Assembly: GCA_950295325.1 (NCBI GenBank)
Contig: OX485808.1
Coordinates: 17,132,527 to 17,196,526, forward strand
DNA length: 64,000 nucleotides
Source: Polytrichum commune
Lineage: Eukaryota; Streptophyta; Polytrichopsida; Polytrichales; Polytrichaceae
Reading direction: 5' to 3'
Shown: positions 45,390 to 64,000 of the stretch, piece after piece
Layout: every line of letters starts with the position of its first letter
Numbering within the stretch: the first letter of the stretch is position 1
Translations under genes and position numbers: made by a program
The notes under the pieces: model-generated
The model's input: the letters and a program-made list of their open reading frames with translations, nothing else
Told to the model about the DNA's origin: nothing
Databases searched by the model: none

Positions 45390-45627
45390 CAACACAGTGG
45401 TACCATCTACACTAAGCGTAGATACTGGCCACAGGTGGTGAGCTTGAGGGCCCTTGTGAGGGGGGAGGGACAGTGCAGGCACTGGATAGAAAACTGGAGG
45501 AAAAGGAGAGGAACGTGAGGAGATGAGCTTAGATGCCCATGGACCCCAAGGGCGTGGGCATTATTCGAGGGTCTAGAGAAAAGAGGCCAGGGCTGAAGCT
45601 GGGAGTTGTACTAACAAGTGTGACTCG

Positions 45628-48600
45628 ATGCAAACAAAAGAAGAAGAGGTTGAGGGGGCAGCAAGCCTCTTGCTGCGGAGGGGGGGTTCCATGACTGCCT
45701 TACCACCTTCTTCAGCTCATGCTCATGCTGCTCATGTGCAGGGTGGGGTTGGGGGTGGTGGCCATGGCGCTGGTAGCCTCCTGCTCTTGCAACAACAACA
45801 ACAACAAGACGTCGACGCTGCTGGGTTATCCAGCAATGCAGCCGTGGATCATACAACAGGTTTGGACTACCCCAGTGTCCCAACAAGCTCATCAGGGGGC
45901 AGCAACAAGCGCAAGCGACGTCCTGCGGGAACGCCTGGTATCTCTTTTGCACGACCCAATCACTAGACTAGTTTTCTCTTCGAGATCCTGCTCCACTTCC
46001 CTACTCTAGATTTCTCTTTTTATGGCATAACCCTGCGTCCTCCATGTGGATGACTACAAGTTACAGACAGACAGACAGACAGACATTAATGTCGCCAACA
46101 TCATCACGAATAGCGTGCAAACTACGCGCCGGACTAGGTTATCTCCGAAACACCATCCAAACACCGAGTCTCTCAATCTTATCTCTTTTGAAGCCTTTAG
46201 CAATACATAGTTCTCTACGGTGCGTTTCATGATCCCGCACGATGATCCCTACTACTTTTAATCTTAATGATCATGCAGCCGCCAGGCTTGATGATCTGTT
46301 AGCCCATTGAGTCGCCTTCACCGGCTCTCGAAGTGTGGCTCCAGACTTGCTGCTCGTTGTGTGTGGAGGAAGCTCCAGGAGGGGTTAGCTTTCTGTGGTG
46401 GACTATACCGAACAATTACTACCAGCCTCTTGCTGCAGTCCACATAAACGAGGTCACCTAGCCAGTGTCACTTGCAGTTCAATGACGCCACTGCTGCTTG
46501 GCAGGTGGAAAATCAAGGTCCAAGAGTATCTATGTGGCCTGGCTAGCTCCCCTTCGGTAGGAGTTGTAACCTAAGCAGTGGCTGAGGGCTGCCAATTCTC
46601 TTTCCCACCCGACCTGCAATTCACTCAAACTGTAACTTTGACACATGATGAGGAGCCGAGTCAGGTGTTGAGGAAGAGGCCAGCTTTGAAACACCACAAG
46701 GTTGACAAGGACTCCCTCCAAGCAGTCCTCTCTCTAGGCCCACTGTTACTAGTCTTTCAGGTTCTCCAAAAGATAGACTTAGTACACACGATGGTGCCTC
46801 CCACTCAGCCTTACCCAGCGGTGTGGATCAGCTTCTAGCGCCACTGAAGACCGTGGATCTTGTAGGACGGGGCTAGACTTGCTGCAGACAGCAACAGAAA
46901 CCTATTGAGTTAGCCAGGCTTTCTTGACAGTTTAAACATGGAAGTTGCCTACATAAAGTGTCAAGAAACAATTAAGGATTTGTGAAGAGAACTAGACATT
47001 TGAGGGTAAGTAGTTCGGCCAAGGAGCGAGGACAGGATAACACCCACGTGCTTGGCTTGAGAGCAGCTGCTGCTTCCAACAACGTACTTGACTATTTGGA
47101 GCATTTTGCTTCTAGTCAGTCTATTGTCGATGACCATGTCTCTAGGTACGCACATTTGAGAAGTATCTTTATCAGAGACCAAGAAACTTTGGATGAGAAC
47201 TGCGAACACTGAAGATTTAGCTCCTTCACTATTAGCCCTATCTCCTTGCCCGTCAACAATTGGAGAAGACAGTCTTCTTCTAGTTCTTGCCAGAATGAGT
47301 CTATGATTACTCAATGATCGGAGGTTCTCGAGTATAGTACCCTCGAATGCGATGTTGGCATCCGCGGAACGGAGGATTTCTATGAGCTATACTGCTTAAC
47401 ACTGGGTACTAAGAGACGTGGATATTAAACTGTCATGTACAAGATAACAAAGTTGTGTGCTTATAAGTAACGACCTCTACTTTCTTCCTCAATGATGTTT
47501 GCAGACCCAGGTGCAGAGGTTGTTGCACTGTCCCCCAAAACGTTGATGGAATCGGACAGATATGTGTGCGAAATCTGCAATCAGGGTTTCCAACGTGATC
47601 AAAACCTTCAAATGCACAGACGCCGCCACAAGGTTTGCACTGCAGGCTTCACCACATTCTTCCGTCATTCCTCAGACCCCAGGTTGCTGCTAATTAATAG
47701 TCTAGGCACGTTACTAAAACGTGGATCTTGGGAACGACAACGTCTGGCATGCCAGCAGACTTGCTTGACATCTACATATGTTCCTATTCAAATGGCAGAG
47801 CCGCCTTAAATGTGTTGGACAAACACCACCTTTTTCCCTTCTGCAGGGTCATGGCAGAGTGCTAATAAGTCTGCTTGTTGCATCTGAGGCTAGGCTTCTG
47901 ATCACATTAATCTTTGGGGTTGCTGCCAGGTTCCTTGGAAGCTGCTGAAACGGCCGAGCTTGGGGACTCACAAACGTGTGTATGTATGTCCTGAGCGGTC
48001 GTGCCTTCATCACGACCCGGCGCATGCACTCGGCGACCTGGTGGGGATTAAGAAACACTACAGAAGGAAACATTGCAGCGAAAAGCAATGGAAATGTGAC
48101 AAATGCTCCAAGGGGTATGCTGTGCAATCCGATTACAAAGCGCACTTGAAAACTTGTGGCACCCGAGGCCACTGCTGTGATTGTGGCCGAGTGTTCTCTA
48201 GGTAAGAAGAAGCCTGGCAGATTATGACCAGCCAGGTGATCAATCATAATCTCTACTCAGCGTAAACCTGCACGATTCCAATTGCAGCACTCCTCCTTAT
48301 CCTAACCCCTTCAAGTCCAGAGTGTCAGGGTTACACTTGTGAATGTTGCAGATCATTTAACTCACTTCAGTACTTTCTTTGCTGATGGGTTATGCCGGCG
48401 AAGGTAAGACTGATCTTGGTTTCCATTTTTATACTTCTAGATTCAAGGTGTTGTTAGAGAAAATTCTTCTGTCGATGATGATTCAAACTTTGCTTCTTGC
48501 TAACCGTGACTCCTGTGCACAACTATGGAATTTACACAGGGTCGAGAGCTTCATCGAGCACCAGGACACCTGCAGCGACGTGAAACATAAGAACATGCAA

Positions 48601-51600
48601 TCCGAAGGCGGGGGTGACAGGAAGACTTCCCGGTTCGGCGGCCACCCGCAGCACACCCACGGGAAATCTGATGAAAGCCCTAGCCAATCCAGCGACACAA
48701 CCCAAGCCATCCCCTTCGCACACTCAGGAATGTCGGAGACAACAGCGAGTCGATCTGTTGACTCCACCCGGTTCGTCATCAATGAGCCGAGCGCTCTCCG
48801 AAGGCTGGAACAATCCAGCCCTGCAATGCATGCTGTGAACATGCCTGCTTGGCTCACGGATCAACGACGAAGCCACAACGAACTGGAGCTCCTTCCATCA
48901 ACTCATCATCATCAACACCACCAACACCATCAACACCACCATCTCCAACCACACCATCATCAGCAGTCAACCCCTGCTGATCATTCTTTCTCGGCGATGA
49001 AGGATTTTCGAAGAGAAAATTCTTCCTCTCAAGCTGTCAGTGGGTCAAGGTCATCAACCCATGTCCTCCGTTGCAGCTCTTTGAATTCCCGGTGCCCGGA
49101 TATTGCCTCTTGCACCGATCCAACCCCAGATACCCCACAAACTCAGCCGGTTGCAGATGATGCCCACACAGCTCCTCCTTCCTTGCACCTCTCTATAGGC
49201 CCTTCGAGTGGCGAGATAGGAACAAGTGGGAGCCCATTCCTAATAGAATCTTCATCGTGTATGCCGGACACCAAACCTCGCCTGAGCTCCCGAGAAAGGG
49301 ATCTAATGGTGCTCACGCACCAACAAGCGCAGCTGCAAGCTAGAGGGAGTAATTCTAACGTTACATCATTAGGCAAGGATCTGGCTCTGTCGTTTCCGGG
49401 AATTGTAGGATCACATCAGCCGGGCCAGGGAAACAGTTTGAAGCCGGAAGATCATCGTGGGAGGTCAGCCATACCTTTGACTGACTTTCTTATCCAGGCC
49501 GCCAAGCGGCTGGGGCCTCCTCTCTCTGATGACTTGCCAGACTCTCCCAGCCGAGATAACCCACCGAAGAAACAGATGAAATACCACACCGAACTGGGCA
49601 GGTCCCCTAATTACGGTGCAGGCATTGGTTCGACATTTCATGGGGATCAACGTGGGGTGATCCAGGAATCAGGTATAACTGTGAAGATGTACATTCTTAC
49701 AACTTCTCCATGACAAATTATAAGTAATGCTTCCAATGTTGCCGAGTTTTAAGTTTGGGTATCTATATAGTTGCAGTGTTCGTTGGTCTTCAAGTTGAAG
49801 TGCAAGTGCAGAAATTCAGGTTCTAACATGTTGGTGTTCATACACCCAATTTTTCGTTTGAACTGAAGATTCATCCGAACTGAGGACCTCCAGAAGAGGC
49901 AGTACTTTTAACTTCCAGCACTCTCCAGGCGCCGGACCACAGTTGGAGCCGGCCACTTCCACTTTCACACGCAGTCATGCAGCTATGGATCAGTCTAGGG
50001 ATGCTGCCACTCAAGCTTCGGAGCTCTTCGGTGGTTCCAGAGGCAGTGTAGGACCTGAAGCAGCTCATAGACAGAAAGAGATGGGCTGTCCTGAAGCAGC
50101 AGCAAGCCAGCCCACTGACCAGGTATATGTCATTTATTTCGTAGGATCAGTTAACTCTCTTTAAGATAAGAATGTACGCTGTTTCACCGACTCCCCAATG
50201 TCAGCAGCTCACATTCTGGACCATCATGTGACGATCATTTTCTCATGTACTACATGTCAGTCATAAATTAGTACAGGTTCAACCCAGATTGACCCCTCAT
50301 GACAAGAACATCATCTTCGTTAGGACAGTGATTCGGTGGCATACAAAAATCTCATCACTACGGATTTAAAGGGTTGCCACACACAACTTGAGCTGAAGCT
50401 CAGGGTTACAAGTTTCGTGGACCAAAGGGAAAGAATCTGAGCTCTTGCATGTGCCCAAGATGGTGGAGCTGGTTGTCTCCAGGTTGTCCCCCGCAATTTT
50501 TAGATTGATTTTCAAGTTCGAGCCCAAACACGAACTTGAAGAATGTTCGATGACTACAAGTTCAAGTTCGGATTTGAACGTGTAAATCAATCCAAGAAAA
50601 GGAGCAAAACTAAAGCTCCTGCATCATTTTAGGCACTTGTAACGTAGGGTCCAAATTCTTTTACCTTGGCCCATGAAGCTTGCAACTTGAGCTTCAGCTC
50701 AGGCTGCGTGTGGCTGGAGCATTCAGTGACCATCATAGCTTAGATTCATCGGCTTGTTAACTTTCTGGTAGCGCAGAGGGTGGAGACGAAGGTGTTGTAT
50801 ACCTGCAAAGGCTTAGAGTCATCGGCTTGACAATTGGACTACACTAGTCTCCCTTTGTAGATGGTGCCACACAAGACCTAGCCTAAGTTGTTAAATTGCT
50901 GGTTGCAGGTTCGAACAGATATGATGAGCACAGGTTGGTGTGATCTCGCTGCTGCCAGGCGAACAAGAGAGCAAGCTCGGCAAGAGAGCCACGAAGCCCA
51001 GAAGGAGATTGCAAGAGCTGACCATCTGAAACGAGAAGCACGAGAGCAGCTGCAACTAGCTTCACAAGACCGAGCCTACGCCGAGCACGCCAGGGAGATC
51101 GCCAAGCGGGAAATGGACTTGGCCCAAGTGGAGCTTGCCAATGCCAAACGGCTACGTGAGCATGCGCAAGCCGAATTGGACAGGGCTCAGTCGTTGAAAT
51201 CGGAGCGAGCTGCAGATCGCTCCCTCTGCCAATCGTGCAGCAAGATGTTTACCAACGATCAATATAATTCCAATCGCATGCAGCAGTCATCGACTCCTGC
51301 AGTTTTACACATGAGGACACCGCACACCTTGCAGATCACCGAGTTGCAGCAAAGTACAGGTGATAGGAACTCTCACAGTGCAAGTGACTGGCAGAGTTTA
51401 ATGCTGAGTCTCTGTTAATGCATTCTTTTCCTTCAGGATTTTGATATTTGTGTAATGCTACCTCTGAAACATTTAGCAAATTATGAGTCATTCAACATTG
51501 ATTCAGGCTGCTCGTAATTCAACCTTTCAGATGTTGCAACCATAAAGTATAGAGAAATAGAAGATCAAAATGCAATCGCAACCCTGTGTTTGGTAGTCAT

Positions 51601-53260: not shown

Positions 53261-56200
53261 TATATCCATATCTAATTGATAGAACTGCCTGCAGTTACAT
53301 CATAACTGCTCAAACATGATTTTGCATCTGAATAGGTTTCTGGTTGAACCTGGTTCTCAATATCTTCCAGAGGGGCCGGATTAGCATGACAGGATTCATA
53401 GTAAGTCGCTCCAACATGATTAATTTGGCAGGTCTGTGACTCTTTTGAGGTGGACCTCATAGACCTGCCTGCACTGGACTTAATTATACACCTCATTTCA
53501 TTAAGTACAAAAATACATACATTCATTCACGCACACATACTGCAGGCAGGACCTGGTGAGGAGATGAGTACTAGGTCGGTGTCGACTGTCCAGTGGGCCC
53601 AGAAGCCTCGCTCTTTTCACAACTTGGCGCCATGATTCTTTGCACTTCGAGGCTATGATTGTAGAGAGTTTTAACCCATATGGACGGACGCAGGAGAGAT
53701 GAGGAATCTAGCCAACTCTAGCAGCTATGTAGCCTCCCTGCTAGTTCTTTTCCAATATAAACCAAATTATTCACAAAGTTTAGAATTTTACCCTCTTCTG
53801 CACATGGAAGAGATCATAGCTACCAGTGTGACACCTTTGTGGAAGGAATATCAGCTAGGGTATGTCACCCTGTTGTAGGCACTTCCAGCTCCACAGACAA
53901 TTTTGACCTTGGATCTCATTGGAACTAGTCTCATTCGGCTAGCACTTGTGGGGCACTTGAAAATCACACAGATTGTCATTTCGAGGTCCAAAGTCGGAGT
54001 TGAGATGCAAAAGTTGTAGGAGATTGGAGTTATCCGTAAAGTCCCTCAAAGAAGGACGAAACCGTGGGTTTGATCCTTCTTTGAGCAAACTTTCTATTAA
54101 TATCTTGCTAGTACGTTATGTTTCGGAGCCTATTTTGAAAGTTGGGTGCAAATTTTGAGACTTCCTCTTCCCACTTCTCAAACTTTGAAAATTTTAGGAC
54201 TTAAAAAAGGGTATGCACATGGGACATGTTGTCCTAATTCCCAGATAGGCCTATACAAGGCTAGCTTGGTCCACCCATACTAGTAGGACAAGCTAGAAAG
54301 TTAGTTTGTAATAGCTTGACACCACTCCTTGTGGATGATATTTTAAGCATTAAGAAAACTTGGGTGACTTTGTGTCAATTCTCATAAACTCATGGTTAGC
54401 ATCTTAACCCATGGTTTCATCCTCTTTACTTTACGAATAACTCTATTGGAGTGTGAAGATTAATCTCTTTATTTCTAAGTGATCACATAGGCTCTCCCCA
54501 TTATGTTTGCTATTGTACCTAGAATGTTTAATATAATTTGAGTACATATGTAGTCCAATCTCATCGTGACATGTGTCTTTTGGTGTCTATTTTTAAGTAC
54601 AGACTTTGCCATACCTTATAGAGCACTTAAAGCGCAATCAACATCAAAGGAGCAAGCCATGTGAATTAGTTGACCAAGTTGCCAAAGTGACATGTAGATA
54701 TTCTCTCTGAGTAGGGGCCATCAACTACCATAAATTTCTTCCCCGGCAATTTTAAAAACAACACTAGAGCCTGCCTTGTGTGGGATCTTCCATTTTAATA
54801 CTTGGAGGACTGAAGATCAATGAATTCTTTCATGATGTAAGGTAGATGGGTCTTAAGTGGCTCATTTTCGTAATCAAACCCCTAGATTTGATTGGTATGT
54901 GGTTCGGTGAGGATCAAAAAGCAAACATCATAAAAACATGTATTTAAAAAAGATTGGATTATCTCTTTAAATATTAATAACTCCTCTACACTCAATAGTG
55001 AATACAATTGAAAAGACCTATGTATTTAGTTAAGAAATCAACAATTAGGGGAGGTCCAAATTTCAATCCGTTTTTGAATATATTTCATCGTAGATTTGCT
55101 AATGCAACATGAATTTTATTGTATAAATCCAATCGGTAGAAGTTGGAGAACATGAAAAACGAACCAAATAACACCCACATACATTAAGTATGTCTAGTAA
55201 TTTTGAAAGCCCTGACTTTTGTTGTGCATCAATCACTTGGTGCAACAAGTTGCTGAAATGAAAGGCTTGACATTTCAAGTTAAGATTATATAATGACATC
55301 TTCCAAATGAAAACCAACTTAGTTGCATCTCATTAACTTTTTGTTCAGCTGTGTTTTTTGTTGTTTGCTGATTAGAAAATGACATCCTAGACTGTGCAAA
55401 AGCTGCCATTGACGTGAGATGTTGCAGTAACCCAGAAGATCTACGTAGTCAATGGTCACTCATGAAAAGCATCCTGTGGAAAAGAGCACGTAAGACCTAA
55501 GTGAAACCTGAAGGACACTTTGGGATGCACTTGATGAGAATTGGTTGGTAAGATAAGCGGACCTTGTTCTATTTGGGGTCTTCAGTTTGGGCCTTAGGAA
55601 GCCCCACGAACTACTAGTAATCAAATAGCAGCAACCAATAAAAACAAGGGGCAATTAGTTAGTGTGGCAGAGTATGGAAGTGAGGATGGAGTTAGGGTGA
55701 GTTTTCATGTAGGCCACTCGTCCACTAGATTCTACAAAATAGTGGGTCATAGTCATTCTCATATATTTAATCACAAGTTGTCATCTAATCACATTCTAGC
55801 GGTCCGCTAGAATGTGGAAGGTTGTGGACTCAGGCCGCTAGACTTTCACACGTCTACTAAAGGATTTTTAACTTACAAGTGCCAATCACCGAAGGTTTTG
55901 AAGATCAGTTTTAGGAGGAGGAGGTTAGAGGTTGGTTCGGATTTCAGAAGATGAGAGTAGCTAGTTGGCACATACAAACCCTACCCCATCAAATTCCATC
56001 TACATTTGGGCGGATTTGTCCTTATTCACACTAGAATCCGGTGGCCGAGTGGCCTGCATGGAAAGCACTAGGGTAGGTGTTCTTTGTTTTTGTTAGACTA
56101 TATGCAATCCATGACATAATCGAGCTGAGCATGGAAGTTAGGTGAGGCAGTATTCAAGATCTATCCCAAGTTTATTCTCATAATGTGAAGCACTCTCATT

Positions 56201-56900
56201 GATATTATTAGAATGAAACGGCTGATAGCAGTTGAATAATGTTATGCCATCTTTCAAAGGATGTAAAATTTTATTCAATTTGCCTCCTCTAAATATATGT
56301 GCGAATATTGTGAACTTTTAACCTATGAGAAGCAGATCTAGGTGACATAAGTAGAGGTGTACCAACAACCATGGATGTTGATTTCCAGATTGTGTCAGCT
56401 GGCTAAGTAAGAAACGTCAATCATTAACCTCTACCTACTTTGACTTAACTTACTTTGATCAGTGCTTACACATGTAGCAGTACCTTGCAGACTGGGTGTG
56501 TACATAGAGTACAGTGAAGGTCCAAGGACTTCAAGTTCATTTGATATTAAGCACAATTATAACCAGCTTATGACGTCATAAATTGCAGTTTAGAGTAAAC
56601 TTTTCCATGTTCCTTTTGGATAACAAAGACATTCATTGGGCGAATACAAGCTAATTTGAAGCACTTATTATAGGTAGAACCGTACAGTGCTGAGGTCATC
56701 TTGCTTTATCAGGAGATGAGTAAGCTACAATAAATGGGGCTAATCTGCTACAGGCTATAATATTAGCCATTTGCAAAGTTAACAAAAAGGTCCTGATTCA
56801 AGCTCTACATCTAAAAGCAGTTACAGAACATAACATTTATTCAGCTAATGGGGAAGGGTGGGTGGGGCAGGGAATATGTCAAGATAGATTCGGGCATCTT
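53261..56900. other. No gene seen; 27-bp palindrome at 55790-55816
   Basis: Open frames of 84 codons or fewer show no recognisable family. CACATTCTAGCGG and CCGCTAGAATGTG form a perfect 13-bp inverted repeat around a single T at 55803. Confidence 0.45.
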
Positions 56901-56901
56901 A

Positions 56902-59110
56902 GGGGCGGTTTACACTATGGACCATGAAGTCGGACCATGGAAGATGGCCTTTATAAAAAATTAGTTTTGAGAGCCTTGGGTCCCACACTAGGTGTAAACT
57001 GAATGTGAACCAAGAAGAAAGACCATGGACCAAAAAGTGAAGGTGTTGATTTTTTTTAATTCATTCACAAAAAAGGGCAATTTTAAAAAAAAAATCAACT
57101 TTGACCATTCTCTTGGCTTCAATCATCTTGTCTTGACCTAACTTCTTGTTTTTGCTTGTTTTCACTTTGAATTTCAGCAAGCATGATTGCAATGAAGGAG
57201 AGGAGGAGCCTTGCGTTGCTTTTAGGATTATACATGTTTTTGTACATGCTTGTGAACCATGTTGTGGACATTCAAGCATTGCTTTTGCAAAGAGAGTGGA
57301 AGAAGGTTGCAATTTTGAGCTTGGTTTATGAGAATATGAGGCATAGAAAGAAAAACATATGGAGTCAAGAACGGATGTCCGGATTTGTAGAACAATTGTT
57401 ATTGGGATCGTGGATAGAGAGAGAATTTAGAAAGTGAACTCGATTGAAATATAATATTTTAGATTTTTGTGTAAGAGGTTGGGCTCGTATTTGAAAAAAG
57501 AAGAACCTCGTTTTAGATTTACCATACTGGTGTAAGAAATAGTAGCAATGTCATTGCATAGGTAAAGTAGTAGCGATAGATTGCAAAGTATAGGAAACTT
57601 GTATGGAGTTCATTAGAGCACATTATCAAAAATAATGAGAAAATTTTGTAAGGTTGTTAGAAAGCATTTGCAGCCAATTTTTGTACCAACTCCGGATGAA
57701 TTCCAGTTTAGAATTCTAGCTACAAAGTTCGAACAACTACATGGTATACCGTACGTTATAAGGGCAATAAACAGTTCGCATATTCATGTTTTAGTTCTAA
57801 TAGTCATCGGAAAGTACTATAATTGTAGGAAATCATTTCACTCAGCAATTTTACAAGGGATTGTTGGATTGGATTGTATATTCTAGGATTATGAATTTGG
57901 TTGGATAAGAAGTCTACACAATTAGGTTGTATTCCAGGTGACAAAAATTGGACGAGTATGTATAGAAGGAAAATTCCAGCCATACAAACTTGTCGGAGAC
58001 GTTGCATATCTGGCGAGGCCGTAGATTTACTATCTATTTAAGGATATGAGTATTGCATTATCCGGGAAAGAAAGAAACAAGAATTTTATCCAATCTTCAA
58101 CTAGAATGTGTGTAGATTGGGCATTTGATATACTGAAGGGTAAATAGAGGTTAATAATGAAGCGATCGGAGGTATCATTGAGAAATGTACCAGATATTGT
58201 AGCTATATGTATAGTGTTGTACAATTTATGTATTATAAACAATGAAGGGATCAAAGAAAATTGGATTGTAGAGGCAGAAAAAAAACTAGTTACAAGAGTT
58301 ACTGAAGGAGAATTATGAGAAGGAAGTGAACTACGGAAACAAAAACTTGGGCTTGTTAAAGTAAAAAAAACAATTTTGGCAAGAAATGATACTCTAATTT
58401 CATATGATATAAATGATGTAATAAAAAAATTTATAGAAGAAAAATGAGAAGACAAATGACCTTCTAAGAAAAACCACAGTTATGCATGCATAATTTACTT
58501 GCAGAAAGTCTGTGACATTACAAAATATGAAATAAATCCGGTATACCTGATACAGATAGCGATAGTGATAGTGATATAGTAGAATAGTACCTAAATTTTA
58601 TTTAAGAAAACAACAAATTTTCTATCCATGTTCTTGAGGAAATTAATAGATTCTAAGAATAACGCCAAAAAACTTAGAAATTGCCAAAAACCTGTTCCAA
58701 TAAACTTTCAATCTTTCCTTGAATTTTTTTTTGGCTTGTGATCCATCTGTTGTTGATGTAGTAACTAATATTTTTTTATATTTTTTATATTTTTTATTTT
58801 TTATTTTTTATTTTTAATGACAACCGGGACCAATTAGAACCTTTGATTGTAGCTACCAAGCGAATCTACAATTTAATCCAAGTGTTTACACCTGCAGATG
58901 AGAACAACTAAATGTAAATACATACATGAAACATAGCAGTAATTTTGATCTTCAAAAATGACGTGCATTGTAAAAAAAAAATCTATGCATACAATATTCT
59001 TTTGTGCATTTTAATAAAAAATATTTTATTTTCTAGTTAAATCTAAAATTCACTGTAAATGTGATTTAAATGAACCAGAATATTGGATTTAAGCTAGTGT
59101 GAATAAGCCA
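56902..59110 (+). mobile_element. PIF/Harbinger transposon relic (about 2.2 kb)
   Basis: The left end is GGGGCGGTTTACACTA, preceded by TTA at 56899-56901. The right end is roughly the inverse (TAGTGTGAATAAGCCA at 59095-59110). The ends resemble Harbinger MITE D (GGGCCGCTTCACACTA). The right boundary is uncertain because no matching TTA follows. A decayed transposase lies inside. Confidence 0.65.
57183..58500 (+). pseudogene. PIF/Harbinger (DDE_Tnp_4) transposase relic
   Basis: The N-terminal part contains RHRKKNIWSQERMSGFVEQL (57331-57390). The core at 57635-57886 contains VRKHLQPIF, LHGIPYVIRAINSSHIHVL and YNCRKSFHSAILQGIVGLDC; AINSSHI stands where the family has a G-A-I-D-G-(S/T)-H segment, so the first catalytic Asp appears to be Asn. 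In another frame at about 57990 is LVGDVAYLAR, which keeps the second Asp. Near 58107 is MCVDWAFDILKGK, with Asp where a Glu is usual, then a stop, then RNVPDIVAICIVLYNLCIIN, the C-terminal helix of the family. Several stops and frameshifts show it is inactive. Confidence 0.88.
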
Positions 59111-59690
59111 TAGTGTCGCGAAACTAGAAAGTAGGGGTAGGTAGGGCCATAGCCTGATAGCAAAGAGCACATTGTTTGATAACCACAATTTTATTAGACA
59201 TGCTATATAAGGCAAGGCCTTTAGAGGTTGAAGAAAAGAGGTGATTTCTTAATTTTGACTCACGTCGAAATTTTGTCAGATTTTATAACTTCTTTAATTT
59301 TATATTCATTATCATTTTGTGAATTGCAGCAATTGTGTGAGTTTGTGTATTGCTCATCAATTGTCTGTGGCAATTATGTGTTGGAATTGGAATCTAAGGG
59401 AATTTGGACTAGATATTGTAGTAAGTTTTTGCTATGACTTAAAAACAACAAACCCAGGGAACAAGGTCTCCAGGAAGACTGAGCTAGTGTCTATAAGGGT
59501 TAATGTCACATTGGATCAAGGTTCACAATAACATTATAGGGTAATTCTCATTCTTGACTCTCTTTCCTCTTAATTTATCCCATCCTTTCTCTTCTTTATT
59601 GGTTCTTCTGTGATGGTTCGGTAGTGAGTGTTGTCTGTCCTATCTTTCAGGTAGGTCCTATCACTCTAAGGTTCAACCTATTTCCGTCGT
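59111..59690. other. No gene seen
   Basis: AT-rich flank to the right of the Harbinger relic, with open frames of about 70 codons and no recognised domain. Confidence 0.4.
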
Positions 59691-59694
59691 GATT

Positions 59695-62130
59695 AATTTG
59701 GTCTATAGTCTCATGAATTTTGTAACATCGGACTATTGTCTTTGAGTATCCGGTCCATAGTCATCCAATGGATTTTCATCCTACTGGGGTTAGTATCATT
59801 CGATTTCCATAAACCAACATCACAAGATTTTCAATTCAAACTCAAATTATCTTATTCAATACAATGGATTCGTTAATTATTTTATTTGCATTAATCTTTA
59901 TTTAATAACTTATCTCAATCATGAACCATTTTCCATTCCAATCTGGCCTGCAATCTCTGCACATTCCAAGATAAGGTAATCACACTGGACTATATTCCAT
60001 ATTGGCTTATGCCTTGATTAATCACGTATTGTTCATGCCAATAACCTAAGTAATCTCAATCATTCCGCTTCCACTCATAGTCTCAACCTCACGTAGTCAT
60101 CTCACATGCTGAATAATGATGGCTAATACATCTCTCAGCCCGCATTTCCCTCTCATCAGGAACTAGCCTATCCAGGTTTTCATCATTAAATTGCACTCTT
60201 CTAATTCCTAACAAATCCCATCATCGTCTCTCTCTCTCCCTCTCTCTCTTTTCTTACATGCTGTTCAATTTCCCCTCAGACTATAGTCTTTCTTGGCTCC
60301 TTGCGGTAACGCTACTCCTCAATCCTCTGACCTATCTCACTGGTCTCTCTCTTTTCTCTTTCTCTTTGATCAGGTTTTCTTATCCTTACCGGCTCCCTGT
60401 AACTCTAATTAGGTGATTTCTCCTATATTGCGCTCCACTCTTATCCCTCTCATAAAGCTCCGATAGACTATAGTCCTTTTATCGCTGTCTCGTTCCGTCT
60501 CTCTCTCTCTGTTACCATTCGCTCAGGGTTGAGGTTCACGGCTTGACTGACGCTCAAGGATATGTCGTACATAAGCCTCTGTAATCTCACTCTTCGGATG
60601 CCTCTCAACAAATTGTTCTGCCCGGACCTTCAGGCAACTTACTCGGTTTCTTTCTCAATTTCCTCTCATCCAGTTTATCTCAAGTCTCTCTTTAATTTTG
60701 ATTATTATATTTCCCATTTCTCCGGTCGGTATCTCTATTCTCTGATGCGCATTCACTCACTCTCTTTTCCACATACTTTCTTCCTTCAAAATGCTTTCGA
60801 TCCTATCAGTTCCGTTAGATGGTTCGTTTCGCATACAATCACATTCTTACATTCTCCCTCTCATTACAACCTCAATTTCTCACTTACATTCTTACTCACT
60901 CCAATCATTATTTGCACATACTGACATTGCTCATATACACTTGCATACTCCGCAAAAACACTTAATTACTTTCAAATTGATTCCAGTATCAAAAACTTCG
61001 CTCTATCACAGAGTAGAAGTTAAGTCCTTTCAATCGGCATTTGGCCGATCCTACTTGTTCTTCGCTTATCAGCGACTACACTGGACTATAGCCTGAAAAC
61101 ACTCGTTGAAAATGGCCCCGCTCCTTCCTCGGACTATAGTCCTTTATCAGCCTCTTCTCTCAGGCGGTTACAACTCCTTCCTGGGGTCCTTTGGTTTCTA
61201 AAACTACTGTAAAAGTCCTTTCATCTGACTATAGTCTGATTTTTCCATCCATTTATCCAAAAGCTTGGTTCAAAAAACCTACATTCAGACTATAGCCTAA
61301 AAATCTGCTCTACAGATATGCATTAAAATTTAAATTGAATCTATTGAATTTATAATTGTCATGATATTGTAGCATTTACAAGGATAGATTCCTTGTTGTT
61401 TGCCCGAGAATTAGTCTGAGCATTATTGTTTGAATAAATATTGATTGATTATAGTCTAGAAAAACTAAGACTTATAAAATTTATAGTGTGATGTAAATTG
61501 ATATTAAGTTCTAATTCAAAGAGTTTGAGTGATAATAGTCTTTTGAATAATGAAATCAGTGCAGGTGAAATAGTCTATTGTCTGGGGCCTGCATTGAATT
61601 CTCTTACCATATACAAACAATTCAGGCTGAGTCCATCTGGAATAATTAAACTGGATTTCCTGAGCATGATTGATTTTATAATCTGTAGGGATAATGCCAC
61701 AATGTACAAGGTGCAGAGCTTAGTGAAATTTAGGCTTCTGTTTGAATAAATTATGTCTTTAAATTATTACTACGAATCAAAAGGAGAGTAGTGACTATGG
61801 TCTGAGAGAGATATGATTGGTAAATCGAGACTTTGATTAATATATTTTATATATTATACTCTAATGATTACTCGGTTGTGAGTGACCTGGAATTCAAACT
61901 AGCCAATACAATTTACATAAGGTGCAAATAAGTGAAATATTCATGTACGGACAATTGGCTACTATTTGCCCATAATCAATAGTAATGTCGTTGAATTATA
62001 AGTTGTAGTGTGTAATTTCCAAGATGGAAATTAAACTGCAAATTAAGATATAAAAACAGCGAGGAGAGATTCCTCAGAGATTATGTTGAAATTGAATGTC
62101 AGAGTGTTGATGTTGAAGGCTATAGTCTTA
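59695..62130. repeat. Region with many copies of a GACTATAGTC-like palindrome; pyrimidine-rich in its first half
   Basis: Exact GACTATAGTC occurs at 60279, 60466, 61132 and 61227. One- or two-base variants occur at 59701, 59731, 61084, 61288, 61447, 61531, 61793 and 62118. The plus strand at about 60140-61110 is strongly C/T-rich with CT runs near 60226-60250 and 60498-60510, which explains the Ser/Leu/His-rich 120-codon frame at 60562-60924. From about 61320 the sequence turns AT-rich. No known element family is recognised. Confidence 0.7.
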
Positions 62131-62172
62131 ATGTTGATGAACAGTTGCATTTCAACTGTACTAACCTTTCAG

Positions 62173-62275
62173 GGAATGTAAAAGGGTAATTGAGCAAGAC
62201 AATCGTCTGGAGAGGATGGGAAGCAAGTTGGTGGTAGCCGAAAAGACTCGACTGACCATATCCTGGTAAGTAGTG
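62173..62275 (+). other. Candidate orphan internal exon
   Basis: A 103-nt stretch lies between ACTAACCTTTCAG, with a branch-point-like CTAAC, and a strong donor TCCTG|GTAAGTAG. Exactly one frame is open through it, encoding KRVIEQDNRLERMGSKL and VVAEKTRLTI. No partner exon is recognised within the window, so it could be part of a gene extending outside, a relic or chance. Confidence 0.3.
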
Positions 62276-63390
62276 ATTTTATATTAAAGGATCCAAAAGG
62301 GAAGAGTTACTTAAAATGGAGAAACCATAATTCGATAATAATCCAAAAACTTGTTAGCACTCATTCCGGTGGATAACATTGAGAAATTAAGTCCAGTTAA
62401 ATTGAAATAAGAGGAAGCCACAAGATATTAATATGAATGCAAGCAATTCAAAATTAATAAAACAAAAAATCATGCAAGACTAGATTGAATGTTTATGTGG
62501 CATGGTCTATGGTCGTAATTGACATAATTGTGATTACCTTGGCCAAGACCAAGTAAGAGACTATTTTCGGATAGCATAACCAAAATCCTATTTAATTGAA
62601 AAAGATTGAAAATCCTGAAAGGATAGCTGCACAAACTTTTTAAATTATACTAAAGAGGATAATTAATACAAGATTATTGACAACACCAAAGTACCCTTGG
62701 CTTTGGTAACGAGATAAAAATGAATTACACATGCAGGATCATTGACTATGGTTGTGCCTATGTTTATGCACCACACTTGGTCCAATTAAAATGAACTCAC
62801 TGCCAAACCATTATTTGGATAATTAGAGTAAGGTGAAACATTGTCACAACAAGAAGAAGAAAAAGAATAAGATATATCGTCTCATTACCATTCGAGACGA
62901 GCTAGACGAAGAATTTGCCAAAACTGCAAACAAACAAGGTAATGTTTTTAACACAAGCTATTGTTTAAAAAAAATAGTAATTAAACATTGGCAAGTGTCA
63001 AAAGACACTAGAAGATAAGGAGAGCATATTAAGATCATGCAACATTTTGGAAATGGACGATTGGTTACTTCTAAAAAAATGGTATCCATTGTGAACTCTG
63101 TGACCACTCTCCTTGCGACTCTATACATGACTCTCAATCTGCATTATATCCTTCCATTGTTACCAAAAAAAATCTCTGACTACTATACAATCCCACAACA
63201 TGTTCACTAGACAAATGAGAGCCTACTGAACACAACAACCTTATATATAGATTTTACTTCATTTCACATTTTATTTTTTTATTGGTTACTATAATTTGTA
63301 TTTTTATTGTCTTCATTTTATTGGGGGTTTACCTAGATGAAAATTTGCAAAGAATACAATATTCACACAAGTCACACCCATGGCGTGAAT
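62276..63390. other. No gene seen
   Basis: AT-rich DNA. A 61-codon Lys-rich frame at 62833-63018 has no recognised family. Confidence 0.4.
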
Positions 63391-63398
63391 GAATGAAG

Positions 63399-63808
63399 CA
63401 CGGGTAGATCACTCCTTGTCAAATTGAACACCACGTGCGGACAAAGTTTGCTACCCCTATATTACATGCCATATATAATTTTAAAATTTATGATTTTTTT
63501 TCTACATATACATAACCATTGATAGTAACTTTTGAATAGTTTTCTGAAATTTTTAGTCATCTTTATTTTTTTTAGTAATTTTTTTAGTTCAATTCTGTGT
63601 CATTCTAGTTAGAAACGGTATGTTTTATGAAAAAAACAAATCATCAAATTTCGTTACCATTTTTAAGTATGTCATAGGTACTGTGTATATCTACTCATGA
63701 AAAAATTTTGATAAAATTTTGACCCATTTTGGTGGTGCAACTTACCAAAAGAAGATTTTTTTTGGTCGCACGTGATGTTCAACTTGACAATGGAGTGATC
63801 TACCCGTG
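63399..63808. mobile_element. hAT-type MITE with perfect 8-bp target duplication
   Basis: This 410-bp element starts CACGGGTAGATCACTCC and ends GGAGTGATCTACCCGTG. The TIR continues for about 44 bp through TTGTCAA, TTGAACA and CACGTGCG with few mismatches. GAATGAAG is present at both flanks (63391-63398 and 63809-63816). An 8-bp duplication and CA...TG ends fit the hAT superfamily. The interior is very AT-rich and non-coding. The well-kept ends suggest relatively recent insertion. Confidence 0.92.
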
Positions 63809-64000
63809 GAATGAAGAATGTCATGAATGAAGAATGCAATCATGGCAAGGACCATGAAAAACTCAACCACCGTAAACCCGAAAGCTACGGAGCAACTAGG
63901 CACAAATGCACACAAGAACGGAGAAATAACCCATAGTAATCAAAGATTCCTAAACCCATTGGAGCTAGATAGAAACGAATATCCATGACAACAACAACAA

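What the first reader, a model, noticed from the sequence alone, without database searches (positions are those of the whole stretch)
59695..62130. About a dozen GACTATAGTC-like palindromes in 2.4 kb
Seen: four exact decamers and about eight close variants, irregularly spaced, not part of an evident tandem unit. A given 10-mer is expected far less than once in 2.4 kb by chance. Inference: a protein-binding array, the subterminal region of an unknown large element, or relics of a short palindromic insertion.
Basis: partly seen in the sequence, partly recalled or inferred. Interest (0 to 1): 0.72.

Follow-up and report, generated by a model that had tools for sequence, protein, structure and literature searches.

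The report
Retrotransposon control palindromes, clade-specific
The cluster of short mirror-image DNA words lies in the regulatory end of a plant jumping gene nested inside an older one, and related jumping genes in the same genome appear to have changed the word at most of their sites together, as if each kind had its own matching control protein.

Summary
In detail: 4 exact and 8 one-mismatch GACTATAGTC copies in 59695-62130, against 0.04 exact expected in 64 kb. The cluster is two nested LTRs of Ty3/gypsy retrotransposons in a plant-like genome. A solo LTR on the minus strand (59417-61314, TGTAG...CTACA, duplication GATAT) sits in an older, decayed LTR on the plus strand (about 59098-62932). 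A complete relative (C1:2695078-2709420) encodes gag-pol plus a sense third ORF. Palindromes lie in its LTRs and around the third ORF; its leader and gag-pol have none. Sites are conserved in 8 aligned LTRs (0.975 against 0.675) and recur in LTR families without blastn similarity. Many third-ORF relatives carry palindromes of one class, GRCNATNGYC. The half-site differs between clades: GTC in 60 of 60 sites of ten family-A LTRs, GCC in 15 of 17 sites of three LTRs of related elements in the same genome. Most likely these are boxes for an element-specific dimeric regulator, best guess the third-ORF protein. Binding is inferred, not shown. Closest parallels: Sirevirus repeated-motif boxes, VANC motifs, foamy-virus Tas.

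The parts
59417..61314 (-). Solo LTR, family A (1898 bp, TGTAG...CTACA), sense on the minus strand
   Evidence: 86% identical in its alignable parts to the copy in L006/L019, which has its own duplication ACTTG; 83-87% identical in alignable parts to the two LTRs of the complete element in L007+L008
59412..59416 (.). Target-site duplication GATAT, left copy
61315..61319 (.). Target-site duplication GATAT, right copy
60279..60288 (.). Exact GACTATAGTC (LTR sense position 1027)
   Evidence: GACTATAGTC in 7 of 8 aligned LTRs and GGCTATAGTC in the eighth
60466..60475 (.). Exact GACTATAGTC (LTR sense position 840)
   Evidence: same in 8 of 8 LTRs; lost in L031
61132..61141 (.). Exact GACTATAGTC (LTR sense position 174)
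   Evidence: exact in 5 of 8 LTRs
61227..61236 (.). Exact GACTATAGTC (LTR sense position 79)
   Evidence: exact in 7 of 8 LTRs
61084..61093 (.). GACTATAGCC, in LTR sense GGCTATAGTC (position 222)
61288..61297 (.). GACTATAGCC, in LTR sense GGCTATAGTC (position 18); same variant in 8 of 8 LTRs
59701..59762 (.). Three variants at 59701, 59731 and 59753 (LTR sense positions 1605, 1575, 1553)
59988..59997 (.). GACTATATTC, in LTR sense GAATATAGTC (position 1318); same in 8 of 8 LTRs, altered in 2 of 3 added ones (L037, L038)
59098..59416 (+). Left part of an older, decayed LTR (family E) split by the solo LTR; left end approximate; GGCCATAGCC at 59145
   Evidence: homology of the joined flanks to L011 near its proposed LTR start (68.8% over 80 bp, E 1.3e-5; alignment)
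61320..62932 (+). Right part of the older family-E LTR; right end approximate; sites at 61793, 62118, 62198, weaker ones at 61447, 61531, 61573
   Evidence: 70% over 435 bp to L011 (E 3e-54), where CTACA is followed by a PBS-like TTTTGGTACCGTTG; left plus right parts hold 4 GRCNATNGYC sites in 1.9 kb against control mean 0.07, maximum 2

Best explanation
The cluster is two nested LTRs of Ty3/gypsy retrotransposons. SHOWN by sequence: a solo LTR (59417-61314, minus strand, duplication GATAT) inserted in an older plus-strand LTR. A complete relative has LTR, PBS, gag-pol, a linker, a sense third ORF (about 970 aa in open copies elsewhere) and LTR. Palindromes of class GRCNATNGYC are enriched in the LTRs and around the third ORF and not found in leader plus gag-pol of that element. 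INFERRED: each palindrome is the DNA box of a dimeric sequence-specific protein that contacts the two GRC/GYC half-sites and reads the inner N positions loosely. Boxes in the LTR would set transcription or silencing of the genomic RNA, and boxes at the third ORF would set that ORF's own expression, giving a feedback circuit. The third-ORF protein, with its basic N-terminus, is the best candidate. My estimates: anatomy 0.95; boxes for a DNA-binding factor 0.75; factor encoded by the third ORF about 0.45.
For: LTR ends and exact 5-bp duplications: window GATAT; 10 of 11 assessable insertions exact, L038 being the miss. Complete element: duplication ATTGG, PBS TTTTGGCGCCGCTGCCGGGG, 2 of 1737 LTR bases differ; gag, RVT_1, RNase H and rve in Ty3/gypsy order. 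Site conservation 0.975 against 0.675 +/- 0.084, 0 of 20,000 draws as high. GRCNATNGYC against 119 column-permuted control patterns: 49 in 8 A LTRs (control mean 0.39, maximum 34, some permutations probably overlapping the same sites); 5 in linker+ORF3 (mean 0.17, maximum 3); 0 in 7 kb leader+gag-pol (mean 0.15); 38 in 18 loci picked by ORF3 protein (mean 1.08, maximum 17). CTATAGTC/GACTATAG is the best 8-mer shared by one LTR each of A, D and E. Clade shift: A LTRs 60 of 60 GTC, L061+L062 10 of 11 GCC, L063, fetched afterwards, 5 of 6 GCC. Sites at the third ORF: 5 of 5 GTC in L040+L042 (before the ORF), 14 of 16 GCC in L043-L047, 6 of 8 counting only sites before the ORF. Outside family A, positions 4/7 show no pairing coupling (21 WC, 19.6 expected, of 61).
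Against: No binding, expression or methylation data. The third ORF matches no Pfam family (its pieces gave at most two sub-threshold hits), and its first 260 aa match no solved structure (best E 0.99), so no DNA-binding fold is shown. Its highest hydropathy (1.59-1.68) is borderline, so an Env-like membrane protein is not excluded. 5 of 18 ORF3-anchored loci have no strict site in 1 kb. Family D's internal region was not seen. GRCNATNGYC was written down after seeing the loci, and several are near-duplicates; 8 of the 16 L043-L047 sites lie inside the ORF, mostly at homologous coding positions. Distant ORF3 loci mix half-site types (9, 15, 6, 2; three of these loci were preselected by the pattern). 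A looser count in L061-L063 gives 14 GCC and 5 GTC; L061 keeps GTC at position 840; L042 has one GCC site inside its ORF. Family-A LTRs were collected through a GTC-containing pattern, which biases one site per copy. 9 of 25 C1 loci have no further copy, LTR match or nearby ORF3. Four C1 loci without a main LTR match (L021, L022, L024, L026) hold 5 strict sites in 40 kb against mean 0.90, though four are the seeds they were chosen by.
Confidence: 0.55

Rival explanations
1. The boxes are sites for a host transcription factor (stress, light or cell-cycle type) that several retrotransposon families have kept or acquired, as with heat-shock elements in ONSEN (recalled).
For: The same palindrome recurs in LTR families A, D and E, with no blastn match between A and D; 9 of 25 C1 loci are isolated copies, two of them (L001, L002) copies of one other repeat; distant third-ORF loci mix half-site types.
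Against: Related clades in the same genome use GCC instead of GTC at most sites, in LTR and third-ORF positions alike; one host factor would not require that. The 60 kb of window outside the two LTRs hold only 1 GRCNATNGYC, as chance gives.
Confidence: 0.27
2. Another element-encoded protein reads the boxes, for example one of the two short leader ORFs (170 and 169 aa) before gag, or integrase.
For: Leader ORFs lie between the 5' LTR and gag in L008, and a frame that looks related by eye is in L010. The clade shift needs an element-encoded reader, not specifically ORF3.
Against: Boxes are concentrated at ORF3 and not found in the leader, which fits self-regulation of ORF3 better.
Confidence: 0.12
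3. The palindromes act in RNA: pairing between copies builds hairpins or dimers in the genomic RNA, or triggers small RNAs, as discussed for Sirevirus palindromes (recalled).
For: The first 260 nt of the LTR fold more stably than shuffles, z -1.2 to -4.2 over 8 LTRs.
Against: Any two copies of a palindrome pair trivially. Outside family A, positions 4 and 7 pair no more than independence predicts (21 against 19.6 of 61), and 18 of 61 sites mismatch at 2/9.
Confidence: 0.07
4. Subterminal repeats of a DNA transposon, or relics of a short palindromic insertion.
Against: 5-bp duplications, TGTAG...CTACA ends, PBS and gag-pol of relatives; sites are conserved while flanks diverge.
Confidence: 0.02

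Closest known systems
Sirevirus repeated-motif (RM) boxes, Ty1/copia (PMC2829016; passages and section 9 read)
   Same: Palindromic, high-copy boxes in LTRs, and further copies in the linker before (in two elements also at the start of) the extra ORF in the env position; similar boxes in elements with little other homology
   Different: Here Ty3/gypsy; class GRCNATNGYC, AT-centred, instead of a CGG-CCG core in CpG islands; boxes also inside the third ORF (3 in the part of L040 held, 6 in L042); half-site shifts between clades within one genome
VANC anti-silencing proteins and their motifs in VANDAL DNA transposons, Arabidopsis (PMC5735166, passages read)
   Same: High-density short motifs in non-coding parts of the element, with sets that differ between related families and are read by each family's own protein
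   Different: VANDAL is a Mutator-like DNA transposon (recalled); the VANC21 motif YAGTATTAY is not palindromic, is arrayed in one orientation and spread by tandem repeats; here irregular palindromes and no protein shown
Foamy virus Tas with LTR and internal promoter (PMC4929722, passages read)
   Same: Candidate logic: an element-encoded DNA-binding regulator acting on LTR sites and on an internal site before its own gene, upstream of the 3' LTR
   Different: Animal retrovirus; no homology tested or claimed; the internal promoter is only inferred here
Retand-type Ty3/gypsy elements with additional ORFs (PMC11963269, passages read; PMC7264820, passages read)
   Same: Non-chromovirus gypsy with a long pol-to-3'LTR region encoding an extra protein, proposed there to bind DNA or regulate
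   Different: Their extra ORFs are described as antisense; here it is sense, about 970 aa, no Pfam match; palindromic LTR boxes are not described in the passages I saw

Membership tests
Ty3/gypsy LTR retrotransposon | TG...CA LTR ends with short target-site duplication | tested here: met
   Window GATAT; 10 of 11 assessable insertions exact
Ty3/gypsy LTR retrotransposon | gag, then PR-RT-RNaseH before integrase, PBS after 5' LTR | tested here: met
   Complete relative L007+L008; protease match is weak (E 0.0055, below cut-off); the window copy itself is a solo LTR, so filed through its relatives
Ty3/gypsy LTR retrotransposon | Chromodomain (defines only the chromovirus branch) | tested here: not met
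   No chromodomain among Pfam matches of the 2004-aa ORF at E <= 0.5; hence probably a non-chromovirus branch
Sirevirus (Ty1/copia) RM boxes | Ty1/copia gene order | tested here: not met
   RT precedes integrase
Sirevirus (Ty1/copia) RM boxes | CGG-CCG core | tested here: not met
   Class is GRCNATNGYC
Sirevirus (Ty1/copia) RM boxes | Multiple palindromes in LTR and before the extra ORF | tested here: met
VANC-type sequence-specific anti-silencing | Protein homologous to VANC, shown to bind motif and reduce methylation | not tested
   No VANC sequence compared; the third ORF has no Pfam match; methylation cannot be tested here
Foamy-virus-like Tas circuit | Element protein binds LTR and internal promoter | not testable with these tools
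   Only the placement of boxes is shown
Athila/Tat (Retand) lineage of plant gypsy | RT phylogeny within Tat/Athila; tRNA-Asp-type PBS (recalled) | tested here: inconclusive
   PBS TTTTGGCGCCGCTGCCGGGG resembles the tRNA-Asp type (tRNA recalled); no RT tree made

The most novel reading that the evidence does not exclude
The third ORF of this gypsy lineage is a self-encoded, dimeric DNA-binding regulator that reads palindromic boxes in its own LTR and at its own gene. Related families diverged by switching protein and boxes together (GAC..GTC to GGC..GCC), so several private retrotransposon control circuits coexist in one plant nucleus: a Tas/VANC-like system in plant Ty3/gypsy elements.
Probability: 0.42. 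Interest if true: 0.78.

Novelty: new variant of a known kind. Interest (0 to 1): 0.62.

Why it matters
The papers consulted call the function of extra ORFs between pol and the 3' LTR of plant elements unclear or unknown (PMC7264820, PMC11963269; passages). A palindrome present in LTR and third-ORF DNA, and changing largely as a set between clades, gives a direct, testable handle: which protein reads it, and whether retrotransposons insulate themselves from each other by private DNA codes. It would extend element-encoded sequence-specific regulation, shown for VANDAL DNA transposons and foamy viruses, to plant Ty3/gypsy retrotransposons. If a host factor reads the boxes instead, the clade shift still needs explaining.

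Tried and rejected
Element ends by TG..CA scanning alone gave several chance pairs; homology to L006 picked the true one. A subterminal-repeat/DNA-transposon reading was dropped after the duplications and gag-pol were seen. RNA-structure reading: folding z-scores are moderate but pair coupling is absent. An over-represented-palindrome scan per ORF3 locus was noisy, because 1 kb is short and shuffles often reach 2; it only suggested the wider class. Clean ends for the older outer LTR were not found. One search read loci L039 and L041 on the wrong strand and mixed preselected with unselected loci, so its totals are not used; only its positions for L029, L030 and L036 (all preselected by the pattern) are. 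A scan for TATA[AT]A[AT] in five LTR sequences found none. A Harbinger reading of ORF 57635-57886 found no Pfam support. Coiled-coil content of the third ORF was judged by eye only. Text searches for the decamer (4 papers, by title and abstract start unrelated) and for palindromic LTR motifs or retrotransposon transactivators (top rows of the listings only) showed me no description of this system; most subscription papers are not in that library. Genome-wide copy counts of the LTR and of GGGCAATTGCCY could not be obtained.

Full report
WHAT IS THERE. The decamer cluster is real. GACTATAGTC occurs 4 times in 64 kb, all within 60279-61236, against 0.04 expected. 59695-62130 holds 4 exact, 8 one-mismatch and 3 two-mismatch copies. 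No tandem array is reported there. The window lies on contig C6 of a 408-Mb, 64-contig genome. Genome-wide GGACTATAGTCY gives 184 strand-hits against 42 for the reversed control.

THE INNER ELEMENT. Locus L006 is 86% identical to window 59417-60198 and 60869-61314. Both copies begin TGTAG, end CTACA and are flanked by 5-bp duplications: GATAT in the window, ACTTG in L006. The window copy is a solo LTR, 1898 bp. The orientation comes from a complete relative at C1:2695078-2709420 (L007+L008). Its two 1737-bp LTRs differ at 2 positions, its duplication is ATTGG, and its PBS begins TTTTGGCGCCGCTGCCGGGG. A 2004-aa frame holds gag, reverse transcriptase, RNase H and integrase in Ty3/gypsy order, with no chromodomain match. 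Of 11 insertions whose two flanks could be read (window, L019, L009, L015, L025, L007+L008, L012, L013, L014, L018, L038), 10 have an exact 5-bp duplication and L038 does not. Downstream of gag-pol, in sense, is a third ORF. It is in two open pieces here (260 and 709 aa); open copies elsewhere reach about 970 aa. It has a KKRKRG-type basic start and a central part that looks coiled-coil by eye. Its highest 19-residue hydropathy is 1.59-1.68, borderline, so a membrane segment is neither evident nor excluded. No Pfam family matched it above cut-off, and its first 260 residues matched no solved structure.

THE OUTER ELEMENT. With the solo LTR and one duplication removed in a script, the joined flanks match L011 (70% over 435 bp, E 3e-54; also 69% over 80 bp at the other end). 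In L011 the match runs towards a CTACA end followed by a PBS-like TTTTGGTACCGTTG. The outer stretch, about 59098-62932 on the plus strand, is therefore most likely an older LTR of another family (E). It accounts for the decayed copies right of 61319. Its exact ends were not proven, and no duplication was found for it.

THE MOTIF IS A CONSERVED FEATURE OF THE ELEMENTS. In 8 aligned LTRs, counting both LTRs of the complete element, eight sites average 0.975 conservation against 0.675 +/- 0.084 for windows within 100 columns; 0 of 20,000 draws reached it. Two cautions: aligners can anchor on the motif, and the sites were chosen because they recur. Some variants are shared by 8 of 8: GGCTATAGTC at LTR position 18 and GAATATAGTC at 1318. 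In three further LTRs (L031, L037, L038) position 18 is unchanged, but some other sites are altered or missing: 79 and 1027 in L038, 840 in L031, 1318 in L037 and L038. Four solo LTRs of family D (L012, L013, L014, L018; exact duplications in 4 of 4) gave no blastn match to family A at the settings used, yet carry the same palindrome. Among 8-mers, GACTATAG/CTATAGTC is the best one shared by one LTR each of A, D and E. On contig C1, the 28 listed positions fall in 25 loci. Within 1.5 kb of them are 46 further copies with at most 1 mismatch, against mean 2.2 and maximum 11 for 59 control palindromes. 13 of 25 loci have at least one further copy. Of the other 12, one (L024) has a short match to the A LTR and two (L029, L030) lie about 160 bp before a third-ORF start, so 9 of 25 stay isolated; two of these, L001 and L002, are copies of one other repeat.

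WHERE THE BOXES LIE. I compared GRCNATNGYC with 119 column-permuted palindromic patterns. Complete element: 0 in the 7.0-kb leader plus gag-pol (control mean 0.15, so zero is what chance gives) and 5 in linker plus third ORF (mean 0.17, maximum 3). LTRs: 7 in the window solo LTR (mean 0.06, maximum 5), 4 in the outer LTR (0.07, 2), 49 in the 8 A LTRs (0.39, 34; some permutations probably overlap the same sites), 5 in D (0.03, 4), 3 in E (0.06, 1). In the window 11 of 12 sites lie inside the two LTRs; the other 60 kb hold 1 (mean 1.73). Four C1 loci without a main LTR match (L021, L022, L024, L026) hold 5 in 40 kb (mean 0.90, maximum 5), four of them the seeds they were chosen by. A search with the first 260 residues of the third ORF gave 91 matches. 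Nine of the 81 distinct listed positions of the pattern lie within 300 bp of such a match. In L029 and L030 an exact box sits 161-163 bp before the ATG; both were picked by the pattern. Eighteen 1-kb loci, chosen by me from the 91 protein matches for long frames and variety, hold 38 sites, 25 before and 13 inside the ORF (13 of 18 loci have at least one), against mean 1.08 and maximum 17 for controls. This class was defined after looking at those loci, and several are near-duplicates.

THE CLADE SHIFT. In ten family-A LTRs (two of them cut by the locus end), 60 of 60 strict sites end GTC and 0 end GCC. I then read the stretch after the third ORF, starting TGT..., of two elements whose third ORFs are 64% and 50% identical to A's over the first 260 residues (L061, L062): 10 of 11 sites end GCC. 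A third, L063, fetched afterwards as a check, gave 5 of 6 GCC. None of the three has a GACTATAGTC within 1 mismatch. A looser count gives 14 GCC and 5 GTC in L061-L063, and GTC only in the 11 A LTRs. Sites at the third ORF follow: 5 of 5 GTC before it in L040 and L042; 14 of 16 GCC in L043-L047, of which 6 of 8 before the ORF and 8 of 8 inside it, the latter mostly at homologous coding positions. One GCC site lies inside the ORF of L042. Homologous LTR sites show GTC to GCC in place in L061 at positions 18, 174 and 1575; at 79 it becomes GGC and at 840 GTC is kept. Background T-to-C between the window LTR and L061 is 51 of 342 outside sites, at 52% identity. Family-A LTRs were collected with a GTC-containing pattern, which biases one site each; L040 and L042 came by protein. 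More distant third-ORF loci mix types (9 GAC..GTC, 15 GAC..GCC, 6 GGC..GTC, 2 GGC..GCC; three of the nine loci preselected), so the split is not universal.

HOW IT MOST LIKELY WORKS. A dimeric protein contacting two GRC half-sites around a loosely read centre explains the palindrome, the free positions 4 and 7 (no pairing coupling, 21 against 19.6 of 61) and the shared site variants. Boxes in the LTR and at the third ORF suggest one regulator acting on genomic transcription and on its own gene. Different half-sites in coexisting clades point to an element-encoded reader; the third ORF is the candidate. Binding, transcription effect and direction (activation, anti-silencing or repression) are not shown.

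COMPARISON. Sirevirus RM boxes (PMC2829016) are the nearest anatomical match: palindromes in the LTR and before the extra ORF. Those are Ty1/copia with a CGG-CCG core, so this is not a member. VANC motifs (PMC5735166) give the nearest case of family-specific motif and protein; foamy-virus Tas (PMC4929722) gives the nearest circuit. Retand elements (PMC11963269) have extra ORFs, described as antisense, that are predicted to bind DNA. Novelty: new variant of a known kind.

Noticed in passing
63391-63816: MITE-like element: inverted arms 63399-63415 and 63792-63808 (17 of 17 complementary, similarity continues inward), flanked by an 8-bp duplication GAATGAAG, hAT-like.
   Followed up: partly
56021-59107: 14-nt perfect inverted repeat CTTATTCACACTAG 3.1 kb apart around an ORF (57635-57886) that by eye resembles a Harbinger-type transposase; no Pfam match and no clear duplication; the right arm overlaps the proposed start of the older LTR, so it may be chance.
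   Followed up: partly
45577-51418: Exons of an IDD/SGR5-like C2H2 zinc-finger gene (zf-C2H2_6 E 3.9e-5, just below cut-off; IDD label recalled).
   Followed up: no
L017 4563-5200 (C4:24191642-24192079): Three tandem copies of a 213-bp unit (about 93% alike), each with GGACTATAGTCC: a satellite-like array carrying the box; a stretch of L026 is 79% similar to the neighbouring part.
   Followed up: no
L001 and L002 (C1:1009120, C1:2621818): Two loci with GGACTATAGTCC share a 630-bp stretch (72%) around it: another repeat family with a single copy of the box.
   Followed up: no
L036 (C1:71147988-71150987): 15 copies with at most 2 mismatches in 3 kb around a distant third-ORF relative, many GACWATRGCC-like: another family with its own box flavour.
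   Followed up: partly
L008 6618-7636, minus strand: Two short leader ORFs (170 and 169 aa) between 5' LTR and gag, no Pfam match; a frame that looks related by eye is in L010.
   Followed up: no
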